Assembly (NCBI GenBank): GCA_913056125.1
Contig: CAJXNC010000002.1
Coordinates: 372,001-436,000, forward strand
DNA from: an uncultured Altererythrobacter sp.
Lineage (GTDB): Bacteria > Pseudomonadota > Alphaproteobacteria > Sphingomonadales > Sphingomonadaceae
DNA: 64,000 nt
Reading direction: 5' to 3'
This document shows positions 27,497 to 34,431 of the stretch, one piece after another. Under the pieces are notes generated by a model. The model was not told where the DNA came from. It searched no databases and saw nothing but the letters and a program-made list of their open reading frames with translations. The position numbers and the translations under genes are program-made. Every line of letters begins with the position of its first letter. Within the stretch, counting starts at the first letter, position 1.

Positions 27497-28539
27497 GCGT
27501 AATGTCCAGTGGCCATGAGATAGCCTGAAACGGCAAAGACGAAGAACAGGCTGAGCGGCAGGAAGACCTTCCAGCCTAGGCGCATCAGCTGGTCGTAGCG
27601 ATAGCGCGGTACGGTCGCCATGACCCAGCTGAAGCAGAAGAAGAAGAACACGATCTTGCCGAGCAGCCAGACGATGCCCGGCACGTAATAGAGCGGCTCC
27701 CAGTCCACCGGAGGCAGCCAGCCACCAAAGAAAAGGATGCTCATCAGCGCGCACATCAGCAGGATGTTGGCATATTCGCCGAGCCAGAAGAGCGCGAAGC
27801 TCATCGAGCTGTATTCGGTCTGGTAACCGGCGACGAGCTCGCTTTCCGCTTCGGTCAGGTCGAAAGGAACGCGCTGCGTTTCCGCCAGCGCCGAGATGAA
27901 GAACATCACGAAGATCGGGAACAACAGGATGTTGGCGAAATAGCCATTGATGATCCAGAAATGGCTCTTCTGCGCCAGCACGATCTCGTTGAGATTGAAG
28001 GTCCCGGCCCACAGCACCACGCAGATCATGATGAAGCCAATCGAGACTTCGTAGGAGATCATCTGCGCCGAGGCGCGCATGGCCGAGAAGAACGGGTATT
28101 TCGAGTTGGACGCCCAGCCCGAAATCACCACGCCGTACACCCCGAGCGAACTGACCGCGAAGAGGTAAAGCAGGCCGACATTGATGTCCGCCAGCACCAT
28201 ATCCTCGCCGAAGGGGATCACCGCCCAGCTGAGCAGTGCCACGGTGAAGGTGAGGATCGGCGCGATCAGGAACAGGCCCTTATTCGCCGCGCTGGGAATG
28301 ATGGTTTCCTGCAGGAAGACCTTCAGGCCGTCGGCGAAGCTCTGCAGCAGGCCGAAGGGGCCAACCACGTTGGGGCCGCGGCGAAGGTTGATCGCCGCCC
28401 AGACCTTGCGGTCCATATAGATGATCATGGCGACGCCGAGCATGAGCGGCAGCGCGATCAGCAGGATCCCGGCAATGGTCGCGACGAACCACGCCCATTC
28501 GTAATTCATGCCGAGGGACTGGAAGAATTCGGTCATCAT
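27493..28539 (-). CDS. nuoH: NADH-quinone oxidoreductase subunit H
   Basis: A 348-residue subunit with about eight TM helices that forms the quinone entry site with NuoB and NuoD. Diagnostic segments are [25 protein letters not shown] near residue 43, the acidic loop [25 protein letters not shown] and [14 protein letters not shown]. It overlaps nuoG by 4 nt. Confidence 0.96.
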
Positions 28540-30548
28540 TCCGCTGCCTCCGCCATGGTCTCGCCCAGAACCAGCTCGTTCGAGCAGCGCTGCATCACCA
28601 CGCTGGCGCGGGCGATGGGATTGGTGAGGTAGAAGTCCTTGATCGGATAGGCGATCGCGCCCGAGGGAGTGGTATCGCCCTTCACGCTCGCGGCCAGCGT
28701 ACCGTAATCGGCAATCTCGCCTTCATTGGCGAGCGCAGGAACCTCGGTCGTCATGGCAGCGCGCAAATCGTCGAAGCTGTCGAAGCCGACCTCGACCTTG
28801 AGCGCATCGGCAAGAGCACGCAGGATCGTCCAGTCCTCGCGCGCATCGCCAGGAGCGAAGACGGCCTTGTCGGCCATCTGCACGCGCCCTTCCGTGTTCA
28901 CATAGGTGCCGGGCTTCTCGGTATAGGCGGCAGCAGGCAGGATGATGTCCGCCGCATGCGCGCCCTTGTCGCCGTGATGACCGATATAGACTTTCAGCGC
29001 GTCCTCGAACTGGCTGAAATCGACCTCGTCCGCACCGAGCGCCAGGACAACCTTGGGCTTGGCCGCCACGATGTCCTTGATGCCGCCTTCCTGCGCGAAG
29101 CCGAGCATGACGGCTCCCATGCGCGCAGCAGCCATGTGCAGCGCGTTGAAGCCGTTCCAACCGTCCTTCACCATGTTGAAATCATGGGCAATCTTCACCG
29201 CTGCGGCATGGCCGCCCATGGCGAAACCCGCACCGCCGAGGATGATTGCGGGCTTCTCGGCCGCCTTGAGCGCATCGACTGCTTCGGCAGGAAGGTTGGA
29301 AAGGACGGAAACGTCTTCACCAAGGAAGGTCGCCGGATAGGTGGTTTCCCATTCGGGACCGACAACGAAGACCTTGGCGCCATTCTTGACCGCCTTGCGC
29401 AGGCGGACATTGACCAGCGGGGCTTCCCAGCGAACCATCGAACCGACGATCAGGATAGCGTCTGCCTGCTCGATCCCGGCGAAAGTGCTGTTGAAGTTGA
29501 TCGCCGCGAGGTTGGACACGTCGTAATCCATGCCCGTCTGGCGACTTTCGACCAGCGAGGAACCACAGGCCTTGAGCAGCGCCTTGGCCGCGAACATGGT
29601 CTCGCAATCCACCATGTCGCCGGCAATGGCAGCGATAGCCTTGCCCGGTTTGGCAGCAGCGATCTTCTTGAACGCCTCGTCCCAGCTCGCCTCAGACAGT
29701 TTGCCGCGCTTGCGGATCCACACCTTGTCCAGACGGCGGCGTGTCAGGCCTTCGACCTGGTAGCGCGCCTTGTCGGAAATCCATTCCTCGTTCACGTCGT
29801 CATTGATGCGCGGGAGGGCGCGGAGCACTTCGCGTCCGCGGCTGTCGATACGGATGTTCGAACCGACTGCATCCGATACGTCGATCGAGAGGGTCTTCTT
29901 CAACTCCCACGGACGTGCTTCATAGGCATAAGGTCCGCTGGTGAGCGCGCCGACCGGGCACAGATCGATCACATTGGCCGAAAGCTCATGCTTCGCCGCA
30001 TGTTCGAGATAGGTGGTGATCTGCATGTCCTCGCCGCGATAGAGCGCGCCGATTTCATCCGCGCCGGCGATCTCCTCGGAGAAGCGGACACAACGCGTGC
30101 AATGGATGCAGCGGGTCATGATCGTCTTGATCAGCGGGCCCATATATTTCTCGGTCACCGCACGCTTGTTCTCGTGATAGCGCGAGGCGCCGCGACCATA
30201 GGCCATGGCCTGGTCCTGCAAATCGCATTCGCCGCCCTGGTCGCAGATCGGGCAATCGAGTGGGTGGTTGATGAGAAGGAATTCCATCACGCCTTCGCGC
30301 GCCTTCTTCACCATCTCGCTATCGGTGCGGATTTCCTGTCCCTCGCCCACCGGCAGCGCGCAGCTGGCCTGCGGCTTGGGCGGCCCGGGCTTCACTTCCA
30401 CCAGGCACATCCGGCAATTACCGGCGATACTTAAGCGTTCGTGGTAACAGAAACGCGGGATTTCCTTACCCGCGAGTTCGCACGCCTGCAGCACGGTGGC
30501 GCCAGCGGGAACTTCGATTTCCTGTCCGTCGACTGTAACCTTGGGCAT
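28536..30548 (-). CDS. nuoG: NADH-quinone oxidoreductase subunit G
   Basis: The 670-residue iron-sulfur subunit of the peripheral arm. The N-terminus carries the [2Fe-2S] N1b ligands ([15 protein letters not shown] then NCRMC), the His-containing N5 site in the segment ending [10 protein letters not shown], and the N4 motif with CIHCTRC; a molybdopterin-oxidoreductase-like fold follows from about 220. The ATG at 30548 shares one base with the stop of the unusual upstream gene (TAATG). In-frame codons further upstream lie inside that gene. Confidence 0.95.
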
Positions 30549-31888
30549 TACGAATTTTCCCACACGAGCGGATATACTTCCGTCATCATTGAACCGCGCA
30601 CCATTGCCGCCTGGAAAGGCGCCGTGGGAGCACAACTCTCCCAAGCCCCTCGCATGGCTTCGACTGCGGCTGTCTCTTCTTCCGAACCCGGCTCAACGCC
30701 GACCATTGCGTCAAGCGCATTGGCCACTTCCGGATCGCGGGCAAGCACACACAGCCCCAGGCTGGTGACCTCGAAGTCTTCCGGCAGCGCGGATGCAAGC
30801 GATACGCCATTCTGCTGGTAAAGCTCTTCGGCCATGAAGCCGACCACGACCATCCGCGAAATGTAGGTCTGGCGCGTCAGGCAGGTCAGGTTTTCCTGCA
30901 TGATCGCGTCGAACTGGCCGTCACTGGCAATATTCACCGTGCCGCTATCGAGCATGGCCAGGGATTGCTCGGTACTGTTCTCCAGCACGCAATGGGCAAT
31001 GCGGCGCAATTCGGCACGTTCGCCCGGATCGCTCATCGGATCGGCAGGAGCCGCAACCTGAGTCGGTGCACGTTGCGTCTCGGCGATCTCGGTACCTTCG
31101 GGCGGCGGCGGGCTACTGTGGTTGGAAGCGTGCCACAGCGCTTCGCCGATCCAGACCCGCAGCGTGTCCGGATTGATTTCGACGCGCTGGCCCTGCGGCA
31201 GGCAGGGTTGCACGGCGGGCACCAACGTATTGATCACGGCCATTTCTTCTTCGGAACCGGCCGTGGTGCGGAACAGGTAATCCGCAGTGAAGGGATCGGC
31301 GGCGACCAGGCAATCGGCAAGGTTCATGGCCACGGCAATGCCGGGATTGTCAGAGGAAAGCGGATAGGTCCGTTCGTCGATCACATAGCCCGCCTGCAAC
31401 CATTCGGGACCGTCGGGATAACGGTCTAGATAAGCTTGCTCGATAAACCAGCGGCGCAGGCCGAATGCGGTCCAGCTCAGCTGGACACCCGTATTGAAGG
31501 AATTGGCGACCCGGCGCAGGCAGTCCTGGAAGCCGTAAATGCGCGATGCGCGGTCATTTTCCAGATCGAGCTGCTGGAAGCTCTGGATTCCGTAATCGGT
31601 GCGCGACAGGAAATCGAGAGCACCTTCGTTCGAGCGGTTGTAGATGCAGCGGGTGAAGCGCCCCATCATCTGGCGACTGCGCTCGCGCGTGGCCGAGCCG
31701 ACCTCCCCGCGATAGGGATTGATCAGCGAGGTCGGGAACTGTCGATTGCGGCGGATCCGCGAATTGAGCGGCGTGTAGTCGTTATCATTGCTCTGCGCAT
31801 GGGCAGGAGTGGCCACGATCGCGGTGATCGCGGCAGGGCCCGGAAGGGCAAGCGCCAGGGCGCAAAAGGCTGCTACCAGCCTCTTCAC
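30548..31888 (-). CDS. Secreted protein with four cysteine-paired repeats, inserted between nuoF and nuoG
   Basis: A 446-residue protein of unknown function. The GTG start overlaps the nuoF stop (GTGA), and the stop overlaps the nuoG ATG (TAATG), so it is translationally coupled on both sides. Residues 1-32 are a signal peptide ending ATPAHAQ, placing it in the periplasm. The mature part contains four copies of a module: Cys-[ILV], 36-42 residues, Cys-[LA], then 20-30 residues ending in a helix like IGEALW or MAEELY. The cysteines are at 81/123, 193/229, 300/336 and 380/419, with no others. A Pro-rich linker (259-285) splits modules 1-2 from 3-4. It is not a known complex I subunit; a periplasmic assembly or accessory factor is a guess from position only. 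Confidence 0.85.
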
Positions 31889-33177
31889 TCGGCAGCCTCC
31901 TGCATGGCGGCCCGACGTTCGGCGATACGGCGCTCGAGTTCCGGGCGGAAATGCCTGAGCAGGCCCTGGATCGGCCATGCAGCGGCATCGCCCAGCGCGC
32001 AAATCGTGTGTCCTTCGACCTGTTTGGTCACCTGGAACAGCATGTCGATCTCTTCAGGCTCGGCATCGCCGGTCTCGAGGCGCTTCATCACGCGCCACAT
32101 CCAGCCCGTGCCTTCGCGGCAGGGCGTGCACTGGCCACAGCTCTCATGCTTGTAGAAGTAGGAGAGACGGCTGATCGCGCGGACAATGTCGGTGGACTTG
32201 TCCATCACGATGACGCCCGCCGTACCGAGGCCGGAGCCAAGCTCTTTCAGCCCGTCAAAATCCATATGGGCGTGGCGGATCTGCTCGGCCGGGACCAGCG
32301 GAACCGAGGAACCGCCCGGGATCACGGCGAGGAGGTTATCCCAGCCACCGGTGATACCGCCGCAATGCTTTTCGATGAGCTCCTCGAAAGTGATGCTCAT
32401 CGCTTCCTCGACCACGCAGGGCTTGTTCACATGCCCGCTGATCTGGAAAAGCTTGGTGCCCTTGTTGTTCTCGCGCCCGAATGAACTGAACCAGCTCGCG
32501 CCGCGGCGCAGGATCGTCGGGACAACGGCGATGGACTCGACATTGTTGACCGTGGTTGGACAGCCATAAAGGCCCGCACCTGCCGGGAATGGCGGCTTGA
32601 GGCGGGGTTGCCCCTTCTTCCCTTCGAGGCTCTCGATCATGGCGGTCTCTTCGCCGCAGATGTAGGCGCCGGCACCGCGATGCATGAAAACATCGAAATC
32701 ATAGCCGGTGCCAGCGGCATTCTTGCCCACCAGCCCGGCTTCGTACGCCTCGTCGATCGCGGCCTGGAGCGTCTCCGCCTCGCGGATGTATTCGCCGCGG
32801 ATGTAAATATAGGCGGCCCGCGCACGCATGGCGTAGCCAGCACACAGCGCGCCTTCGATCAGCTTGTGCGGATCGTGGCGGATAATCTCGCGGTCCTTGC
32901 ACGAACCCGGCTCGGATTCGTCGGCATTGATGACCAGGAAGCTCGGGCGGCCATCCTTGCTTTCCTTGGGCATGAAGCTCCACTTCATACCTGTGGGGAA
33001 GCCCGCACCGCCACGACCACGCAATCCGCTGGCCTTGATCTCCTCGATAATGTCGTCCTGCGACTTCGAAAGGAGGTCCTTGGTATTGTCCCAGTCCCCG
33101 CGCTGTTTCGCAGCGTCGAGGTTCCACGGCTGGAAGCCGTAGACATTGGTGAAGATGCGATCCTTGTCCTCAAGCAT
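31885..33177 (-). CDS. nuoF: NADH-quinone oxidoreductase subunit F
   Basis: The 430-residue NADH- and FMN-binding subunit with cluster N3. Visible blocks: [16 protein letters not shown] for FMN near residue 55, [15 protein letters not shown], the NADH-site region [17 protein letters not shown] and the cluster motif [15 protein letters not shown] with a later Cys in HTICALGD. The ATG at 33177 is chosen; a GTG at 33186 would add three residues inside the preceding small gene. It overlaps the next gene by 4 nt. Confidence 0.95.
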
Positions 33178-33346
33178 CGTCGCCACCCTTCTTCTTGATC
33201 ATGCTGCCCTGCTTCAGGCCCAGCGCGCCGAGCATCAGGCCGAAGACGATAAAGGCCACGCCGGTTACATTGCCGTTGGAGAGCGAATAACCGCCCGCAA
33301 CAAGCGACAGGAGAGCACCGAACAGCAGCGAATAGACGCCTACCAT
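33170..33346 (-). CDS. Small two-TM protein between nuoE and nuoF
   Basis: A 58-residue protein: two hydrophobic helices (about 3-19 and 27-44) and a basic KKKGGDD tail that favours a cytoplasmic C-terminus. The ATG forms a TGATG overlap with the nuoE stop, and the end overlaps nuoF by 8 nt, so expression is tied to complex I. I recognise no family. TTG and GTG codons lie just upstream in frame and would add two residues. It could be an accessory or assembly protein, or simply a hitch-hiking small membrane protein. Confidence 0.65.
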
Positions 33347-34014
33347 CACCAATCCCCCCGGTAATCGTGGTTCTCGGTGACCATTTCCGTGAGCGAGGTC
33401 GGCCCGCCAGCGGGTTCGCTGGTATGCCGGCCCGGCTCCTGCGTGCCAGCCTTGGGTGTCTCGCCCGCAGCCAGCGCATCGAGCACGACATCGAGCCGCT
33501 CGGCGGTCAAATCCTCGTAATTGTCGTCATTGATCTGGACCATCGGCGCAGTGGCGCAATTGCCCATGCATTCGACCTCGGTGAAGGACCACAGCCCGTC
33601 ATCCGAAACATGCCCGGCCTTCATGCCGCGCTTCTTGCAGGCGGCGATGATATCGTCCGACCCACGCAGCATGCATGGCGTGGTACCGCAGACCTGAACG
33701 TGGAATTTTCCGACCGGAGCGAGGTTGTACATGGTGTAAAAGGTCGCGACCTCGAGCACGCGAATGATCGGCATGCCGAGGTAGTCGGCGACATATTCCA
33801 TCACCGGGAGAGGCAGCCAGCCCTGCGTATCCGTATCCGCACCGACCTGCCGCTGGGCAAGGTCGAGCAGCGGCATCACCGCGCTTTTCTGGCGGCCTTC
33901 CGGATATTTGGCGATGTGCTTGTCAGCTTTCGCCTTGTTCTCCGCCGTGAAGGCGAAGCTGCCCCAGCGCTCGCGCAGCTCGGGCGTATCGGGGGCGATT
34001 TCACGAGCGGCCAT
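33346..34014 (-). CDS. nuoE: NADH-quinone oxidoreductase subunit E
   Basis: A 222-residue thioredoxin-fold subunit binding the [2Fe-2S] cluster N1a. The four ligands are seen in VCGTTPCMLRG and ECMGNCATAP. YPEGRQKSAVMPLLDLAQRQVG near the N-terminus is the other family block. The last 35 residues (after LDALAAGETPKAG) are a low-complexity extension beyond the usual fold. The ATG overlaps the upstream small membrane gene by 14 nt. Confidence 0.95.
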   Translation of the reverse strand: MAAREIAPDTPELRERWGSFAFTAENKAKADKHIAKYPEGRQKSAVMPLLDLAQRQVGADTDTQGWLPLPVMEYVADYLGMPIIRVLEVATFYTMYNLAPVGKFHVQVCGTTPCMLRGSDDIIAACKKRGMKAGHVSDDGLWSFTEVECMGNCATAPMVQINDDNYEDLTAERLDVVLDALAAGETPKAGTQEPGRHTSEPAGGPTSLTEMVTENHDYRGDW

Positions 34015-34213
34015 ATGCCCTCCCCACCCATTTGAAATAATAGACGATCAAGGCGGTACCTGCGGCAAAGGTTGCAAGGCCGAGCACCCAGCCATCCCAG
34101 GAAGTCATCGGCGCAGCGGTCAGGTAATCGACGACACCCACCACGAGGATCGCGACCCAGAAATTGAGCGCGACCAGCCCCATGCCGGTAAATATCTTCG
34201 CGGAGCGGCTCAT
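34001..34213 (-). CDS. Small two-TM protein 2 between nuoD and nuoE
   Basis: A 70-residue protein with two strongly hydrophobic helices (about 10-31 and 43-62) joined by a short loop TAAPMTSWDG. No family is recognised. It overlaps the preceding small gene by 4 nt (ATGA) and nuoE by 14 nt, so it is translationally coupled within the complex I operon. Together with its neighbour it forms a pair of similarly sized membrane proteins. Confidence 0.65.
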   Translation of the reverse strand: MSRSAKIFTGMGLVALNFWVAILVVGVVDYLTAAPMTSWDGWVLGLATFAAGTALIVYYFKWVGRAYGRS

Positions 34214-34431
34214 GCCCTAAGCTCCTTCAAACCTGCGTAGGCGAGGTCGATGATCAAGCCCACACCAAGAACTGCGGTCACAAATATGGAGACAAAGGCC
34301 CAGAAGAAGCCTGCACCTTTACTCAACCCGATCCAGTCTGCGACTGCGTCATATGCGTAGAAATCAAACAGCAGCATTCCCGCCAATGCAGCGGTCAGGC
34401 AAATAATATATCGGGGTGATCTGGACTTCAC
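34210..34431 (-). CDS. Small two-TM protein 1 between nuoD and nuoE (GTG start)
   Basis: A 73-residue protein with hydrophobic helices at about 8-26 and 42-64 and positively charged ends. The GTG start overlaps the nuoD stop (GTGA) and its stop overlaps the next gene (ATGA). No recognised domain. Coupling to nuoD and nuoE suggests it is made in proportion to complex I. Confidence 0.62.

What the first reader, a model, noticed from the sequence alone, without database searches (positions are those of the whole stretch)
30548..31888. Periplasmic protein with four cysteine-paired repeats, translationally locked between nuoF and nuoG
Seen: a 446-residue protein with a signal peptide and eight mature cysteines arranged as four pairs (81/123, 193/229, 300/336, 380/419), each starting a similar module Cys-[ILV]-x(36-42)-Cys-[LA] followed by a helix of IGEALW/MAEELY type. 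Its GTG overlaps the nuoF stop and its stop overlaps the nuoG ATG. Known: nuoF and nuoG are normally adjacent and the periplasmic side has no such subunit. Inference: a periplasmic factor made in step with complex I, or a domain family that has taken up residence in this operon.
Basis: partly seen in the sequence, partly recalled or inferred. Interest (0 to 1): 0.72.

Follow-up and report, generated by a model that had tools for sequence, protein, structure and literature searches.

The report
Swappable secreted gene inside respiration operon
Between two of the most conserved genes of the respiratory enzyme complex I, many sphingomonad bacteria carry one to four copies of a fast-changing exported protein with paired cysteines, and its versions are lost or swapped far faster than the genes around it; what the protein does is not known.

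The parts
30548..31888 (-). ORF of 446 aa: exported two-unit (four-module) member of the nuoF-nuoG cassette family
   Evidence: profile A1 hits the N-unit (E 1.2e-54; it is in the profile) and, although it was not in the profile, the C-unit (E 1.0e-14) in the own genome
31793..31888 (-). signal peptide (residues 1-32), by eye, cleavage TPAHA-Q
   Evidence: translation; A and Q at the site conserved 95% and 80% in 102 relatives
31064..31792 (-). N-unit (residues 33-275): module 1 with C81/C123, module 2 with C193/C229
   Evidence: AlphaFold pLDDT 87.6, ten helices; Cys columns invariant in alignment A1
30551..31057 (-). C-unit (residues 278-446): module 3 with C300/C336, module 4 with C380/C419
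   Evidence: AlphaFold pLDDT 90.3, similar helix order; its four Cys fall in the invariant columns of A2
31885..33186 (-). nuoF; its TGA stop overlaps the GTG of the ORF
   Evidence: NCBIfam NF010120 E 2.6e-250; sequence
28536..30548 (-). nuoG; its ATG overlaps the TAA stop of the ORF by one base
   Evidence: NCBIfam TIGR01973 E 1.3e-208; sequence

Best explanation
The gene is one member of a family, found here only in Sphingomonadaceae, of exported, all-helical proteins built from pairs of homologous modules, each probably stapled by one disulfide. The slot between nuoF and nuoG holds zero to four of them; many are laid out for stop/start coupling to nuoF and nuoG, so their supply should follow complex I production. 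The scaffold (four Cys and a few other residues) is fixed while the rest diverges. Versions are lost, gained or swapped by birth-and-death or by recombination across the conserved flanks. I think it most likely that the variable surface binds a variable partner outside complex I, in the periplasm or at the cell surface, in the manner of an immunity or inhibitor repertoire, and that the nuo operon is its expression platform. Shown: family, modules, place, overlapping layout, turnover, uncoupled history. Inferred: periplasmic disulfides, actual coupling of translation, the binding role, the nature of the partner.
For: Position and layout. Module duplication. Scaffold conservation at a median pairwise identity of 20.6% with four Cys at 99-100%. 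Patchiness: gap of 150 bp or less in 53 of 134 and over 400 bp in 65 of 134 family genomes; at least 26 presence changes on a 100-tip tree. Uncoupled history: of 13 genome pairs with NuoF+G identity 0.90-0.95, nine have a best shared version of 0.25 identity or less (four have 0.51-0.60), and the median stays at 0.10-0.23 over all bins from 0.70 to 0.95; 17 of 72 copies (9 of 49 genomes, counted from the listing) best match the genome nearest by NuoF+G, whereas nearest by NuoF equals nearest by NuoG in 22 of 49 and 240-aa NuoG slices agree with F+G in 27-31 of 49. Arrays combine versions found singly elsewhere: the three G103 copies best match the single copies of G166, G014 and G079. Still under selection: dN/dS 0.08-0.44 in the listed pairs with finite dS. 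Copies also live away from nuo. Few conserved positions beyond the four Cys.
Against: No toxin or effector gene was recognised beside the slot or beside the unlinked copies (most neighbours there were judged only by eye). No PADLOC family fits, PHROG gives two single-member hits without function, and a link to the Rap1a immunity family is not supported. dN/dS is purifying, with no sign of positive selection. Long retention of one slot could mean a tie to complex I. Uncoupled history can arise by differential loss of old paralogues alone, which needs no arms race, and some near pairs do share versions. Disulfide geometry could not be measured, because the models' coordinates are not exposed.
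Confidence: 0.42

Rival explanations
1. A periplasmic accessory or assembly factor of complex I: it binds the periplasmic face of the membrane arm, as NDUFA8/NDUFS5 do on the equivalent mitochondrial face (recalled), and is made in fixed ratio by translational coupling.
For: Same slot across the family; stop/start overlaps on both sides; exported and Cys-paired; lineage-specific bacterial complex I subunits exist (PIMT in Paracoccus, PMC11522691, passages).
Against: 53 of 134 family operons have nuoF and nuoG within 150 bp; at least 26 changes; some genomes 93-95% identical in NuoF/G carry unrelated versions, odd for a protein that binds a conserved enzyme; copies at unrelated loci.
Confidence: 0.25
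2. An ordinary exported envelope protein (structural, thiol-buffer or chaperone-like) under loose sequence constraint, retained in the operon by inertia and lost often because it is dispensable.
For: Purifying but looser dN/dS than nuoF/nuoG; few conserved positions besides Cys; other small exported or membrane proteins also come and go in other nuo junctions.
Against: Loose constraint alone predicts decaying orthologues, not unrelated versions in near neighbours next to shared versions in distant ones, unless old tandem paralogues were sorted by loss.
Confidence: 0.22
3. The slot itself matters: an intercalated, co-translated gene tunes or insulates NuoF/NuoG translation and the encoded protein is nearly neutral cargo.
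For: Some genomes without the family have other small ORFs in the same slot; the overlaps are kept in many.
Against: 100 of 107 class genomes outside the family have nuoF and nuoG within 150 bp; the Cys scaffold and dN/dS below 1 show selection on the protein.
Confidence: 0.07

Closest known systems
Orphan immunity gene arrays (Vibrio cholerae T6SS clusters; PMC5361080, abstract and start of introduction seen)
   Same: Tandem arrays of variable make-up, versions shared between strains, recombination proposed in that abstract.
   Different: No effector or secretion gene recognised at the slot; no sequence link tested to those genes; inside a respiratory operon; start/stop overlaps with nuoF/nuoG.
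Rap1a/Tai periplasmic immunity family (Pfam PF18602)
   Same: Small exported helical proteins with conserved Cys (recalled).
   Different: No Pfam match in 78 members; hhalign of four Rap1a proteins against the two module profiles gives probability 0.4 (E 0.15) and 4.5 (E 0.009, 33 columns).
IMS-side CHCH subunits of mitochondrial complex I (NDUFA8, NDUFS5)
   Same: Helical Cys-paired proteins on the same topological side (recalled); the rival reading would work like them.
   Different: Twin CX9C spacing (recalled) against Cys-to-Cys distances of 36-42 here; absent from Paracoccus complex I (PMC11522691, passages).
Bacterial supernumerary complex I subunits (NDUFS4, NDUFS6, NDUFA12, PIMT in Paracoccus)
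   Same: Additions to complex I beyond the 14 core subunits; PIMT is described as specific to P. denitrificans (passages).
   Different: No Pfam, PDB-sequence or structural match of this family to any known protein was found; those subunits have been seen bound to the enzyme, this one has not.

Membership tests
nuoF-nuoG cassette family (this report) | signal peptide plus two modules with four invariant Cys per unit, matched by profile A1 | tested here: met
   The window C-unit, not in the profile, hits A1 at E 1.0e-14; the N-unit is row 1 of A1; Cys align with invariant columns; signal peptide by eye
nuoF-nuoG cassette family (this report) | lies between nuoF and nuoG | tested here: met
   111 of 128 strong matches beside nuoF or nuoG
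complex I accessory subunit | stable association with the enzyme | not testable with these tools
   needs co-purification or a structure
complex I accessory subunit | kept wherever that enzyme form is kept | tested here: not met
   53 of 134 family operons have nuoF and nuoG within 150 bp; at least 26 presence changes; lineage-specific subunits such as PIMT soften this criterion
Rap1a/Tai immunity family | match to Pfam PF18602 | tested here: not met
   no PF18602 match in 78 members at E 0.01
Rap1a/Tai immunity family | remote homology by profile comparison | tested here: inconclusive
   hhalign probability 0.4 (score 10.2) and 4.5 (score 16.4, E 0.009, 33 columns) against the two modules; low, but the second scores above the shuffles
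CHCH / twin CX9C proteins | two CX9C motifs | tested here: not met
   Cys-to-Cys distances 42, 36, 36, 39; motif definition recalled
anti-phage defence families (PADLOC) | match to a PADLOC model | tested here: not met
   0 of 78 members at E 0.01
immunity or inhibitor repertoire (works like) | binds and neutralises a variable toxin or attacker | not testable with these tools
   needs binding or competition assays
a fold already in the PDB | clear structural match over most of a unit | tested here: inconclusive

The most novel reading that the evidence does not exclude
The nuoF-nuoG junction of Sphingomonadaceae is a recombination-fed cassette slot that hosts a recognition repertoire: disulfide-stapled periplasmic proteins of a new fold, whose versions are exchanged between species with the conserved nuo genes as homology arms, and whose dosage is tied to respiration by translational coupling.
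Probability: 0.22. Interest if true: 0.88.

Novelty: categorically new. Interest (0 to 1): 0.7.

Why it matters
The nuo operon is treated as textbook housekeeping. A slot inside it that turns over exported proteins faster than its flanks diverge, yet often keeps stop/start overlaps, did not turn up in the literature searches made here (an open-licence library, so subscription papers are unseen). If the proteins bind complex I, they would be a family of bacterial periplasmic accessory factors; if they bind attackers or competitors, respiration genes would be the carrier of an immunity-like repertoire. Either way the family occurs in 88 of 199 sampled Sphingomonadaceae genomes (strong matches, counted), has no name in the libraries searched, and is easy to test. 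The novelty lies in the family and the slot; no mechanism is demonstrated.

Tried and rejected

Against my reading: of 128 strong matches, 17 lie elsewhere, one (G068) lies just downstream of nuoG, and one (G106) follows a nuoF with no nuoG behind it. The control of NuoF against NuoG agrees in only 22 of 49, so nearest-genome agreement is a blunt test. Four of 13 pairs at NuoF+G 0.90-0.95 do share a version at 0.51-0.60. The version identities are identical residues in the best local hit over the shorter length, a rough measure. 'Absent' labels include G096, G094 and G108, which hold possible short or divergent members, so 26 changes may be a little high. The tree was a quick LG+G4 tree with 28 of 97 inner branches poorly supported. 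The 100 genomes were chosen from both classes, so 49 against 51 is not a prevalence. Differential loss of old paralogues explains much of the uncoupling without any exchange.

Full report
What is there. The finding is an ORF of 446 codons on the minus strand (window 31888 to 30548), starting with GTG and ending with TAA. nuoF ends in the GTGA that starts it, and its TAA shares a base with the ATG of nuoG (NuoF and NuoG by NCBIfam). No Pfam or NCBIfam model reaches E 1 for the window protein.

A family. With the window protein as a single query, 45 of 199 Sphingomonadaceae genomes have a match at E 1e-3. I fetched 20 of those loci: in 18, tblastn places the match between nuoF and nuoG; one more (L044) has its members between a nuoF cut by the contig end and nuoG, and one (L049) has four copies with no nuo gene in 14 kb. 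I then measured the nuoF-nuoG distance from two whole-genome searches. For 134 genomes with both genes listed on one contig and strand, 53 have a gap of 150 bp or less, 16 have 151-400 and 65 have more than 400. Outside the family, in 107 class genomes with both genes listed on one contig and strand, 100 have 150 bp or less, one has 171 and six have more than 400 (rows beyond the listing limits are not counted); those six gaps hold other proteins.

Fetching the gaps and iterating a profile gave 102 members with E below 1e-10, six of them from loci without a complete nuoF-nuoG pair. Their median pairwise identity is 20.6%, yet four Cys columns are 99-100% conserved, with A and Q at the signal cleavage site (95%, 80%) and an E (92%) and an R (89%) in the second module. 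A 78-row alignment (A1) has only the four Cys as invariant columns. A1 finds the window's C-terminal half, which was not in it, at E 1.0e-14. In a class sample of 289 genomes A1 hits three of the four Sphingomonadaceae genomes, the window's own included, and gives one weak hit in what looks like a tRNA synthetase. In 199 family genomes A1 matches 97 at E 1e-3, with 146 rows. I dropped the 18 rows above E 1e-7, most of which cover only the N-terminal part of the model, leaving 128 rows, two of which are the two units of the window gene: 103 in 73 genomes lie within 4 kb downstream of nuoF or upstream of nuoG on the same strand, 15 in 11 genomes lie elsewhere, and 10 had no nuo coordinate in my lists. 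Of those ten, four (G003, G140 twice, G145) and three (G010, G134, G038) lie between nuoF and nuoG, G106 lies directly after a nuoF that is followed by another operon (coordinates on the map), and G012 and G112 show no nuo nearby. The total is 111 of 128 beside nuoF or nuoG, 17 elsewhere; among the 111, G068 lies just downstream of nuoG rather than in the gap, and for a few genomes only one flank was listed. Strong matches occur in 88 of the 199 genomes. In the window's own genus 24 of 40 genomes have a strong match (their place was not checked).

Coupling. I took 100 genomes with full nuoF and nuoG: 80 fetched (45 with a gap under 400 bp and 35 with more, drawn at random), 19 earlier loci and the window. 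Of these 49 have a recognised copy and 51 do not, a proportion set by the choice. In 35 of 49 the first copy starts in the ATGA/GTGA overlap with the nuoF stop; in 18 of 49 the last copy's stop overlaps the nuoG ATG by one base and in 10 of 49 by eight. No promoter- or terminator-like site exceeds chance around the window copy. Translational coupling is inferred from these overlaps, not measured. The 40 closest pairs show dN/dS of 0.08-0.44 for the cassette where dS is finite, against about 0.0-0.23 for nuoF/nuoG: a protein under selection, but loosely.

Turnover. On a quick NuoF+NuoG tree of the 100 genomes, presence and absence need at least 26 changes. The two pairs with NuoF+G identity of 0.98-0.99 share their versions (0.82-0.99). 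Of the 13 pairs at 0.90-0.95, four share a version at 0.51-0.60 and nine have 0.25 or less; the median stays at 0.10-0.23 in every bin from 0.70 to 0.95. Examples: G089/G153 (NuoF+G 0.931) score 19 bits with each other, while G153 scores 166 bits with G148 (0.762); G019 and G059 (0.782) share a version at 222 bits. Only 17 of 72 copies (9 of 49 genomes, counted from the listing) have their best match in the genome nearest by NuoF+G, and the nearest genome's copy often ranks 20th to 60th. As controls, nearest by NuoF equals nearest by NuoG in 22 of 49, and 240-aa slices of NuoG agree with F+G (of which they are part) in 27-31 of 49. Multi-copy arrays combine versions that are single elsewhere (G103). 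Either old paralogues are sorted by loss or versions move by recombination between the conserved flanks; my data do not separate these.

How it most likely works. Shown: an exported-looking, Cys-paired modular family, placed in overlap inside the nuo operon, conserved mainly in its scaffold, with rapid turnover of versions. Inferred: the Cys form disulfides in the periplasm; the variable surface binds a variable partner; complex I co-production supplies it during respiratory growth. A fixed complex I subunit should track its conserved enzyme, and this gene often does not; but I cannot exclude a dispensable accessory factor, and I give that a quarter of the probability. An immunity-like role has no direct support such as a neighbouring toxin; a link to Rap1a is not supported and no PADLOC family fits.

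Known work. Library searches for nuo-operon papers in sphingomonads returned none; the one paper with the phrase 'between nuoF and nuoG' is a structural paper on E. coli complex I (listing only). In the Paracoccus complex I structure the added subunits are NDUFS4, NDUFS6, NDUFA12 and PIMT, and part of the periplasmic side is described as stabilised by hairpins in the absence of NDUFA8 and NDUFS5 (PMC11522691, passages). A paper on R. sphaeroides complex I isozymes (PMC4859585, passages) does not mention such a gene in the passages seen. Immunity gene arrays in Vibrio (PMC5361080, abstract and start of introduction) are the closest pattern; PMC12247911 was seen in a search listing only.

Verdict. 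Function is open; the decisive tests are simple.

Noticed in passing
window 34210-34377, 34001-34183, 33170-33346 (minus strand): Three small membrane-protein-like ORFs (55, 60, 58 aa; nature by eye) sit between nuoD/nuoE and nuoE/nuoF; other Sphingomonadaceae nuo operons carry other small genes in the C/D, D/E, E/F and H/I junctions.
   Followed up: partly
L178 (G096), nuoF-nuoG gap of 264 bp: A roughly 90-aa exported-looking protein with a single Cys pair fills the slot and resembles one module (profile E 0.06-0.14): possibly a one-module form of the family.
   Followed up: partly
L190 (G108), gap of about 600 bp: A very divergent Cys-rich ORF in the slot (A1 E 0.002) that my presence/absence counts label as absent.
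   Followed up: partly
L152 (G064), L176 (G041), L179 (G121), L183 (G002), L159 (G048), L186 (G171): In genomes without the family, gaps of 195-270 bp hold other small ORFs: membrane-protein-like ones and a coiled-coil-like one that by eye resembles ORFs in other nuo junctions (L134, L137, L046).
   Followed up: partly
L129 4956-6598, L049 5179-8751: Several members away from nuo carry an IVVTG-like motif near the mature N-terminus, reminiscent (recalled) of sphingomonad TonB-dependent receptors; they occur in tandem.
   Followed up: no
L140 (G106): The nuo operon breaks after nuoF: nuoA-F plus a family member, then a gyrA-like gene (by eye); nuoG is not in the 16 kb.
   Followed up: partly
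G024, G109, G170 (one genus): All three sampled genomes of one genus, each estimated 99% complete, show neither nuoF nor nuoG: apparent loss of complex I.
   Followed up: no
L264 (G260), L268 (G473): Outside Sphingomonadaceae, two genomes of one family have similar-looking lipoprotein-like ORFs (by eye) in the nuoF-nuoG gap: the junction takes inserts elsewhere too.
   Followed up: no
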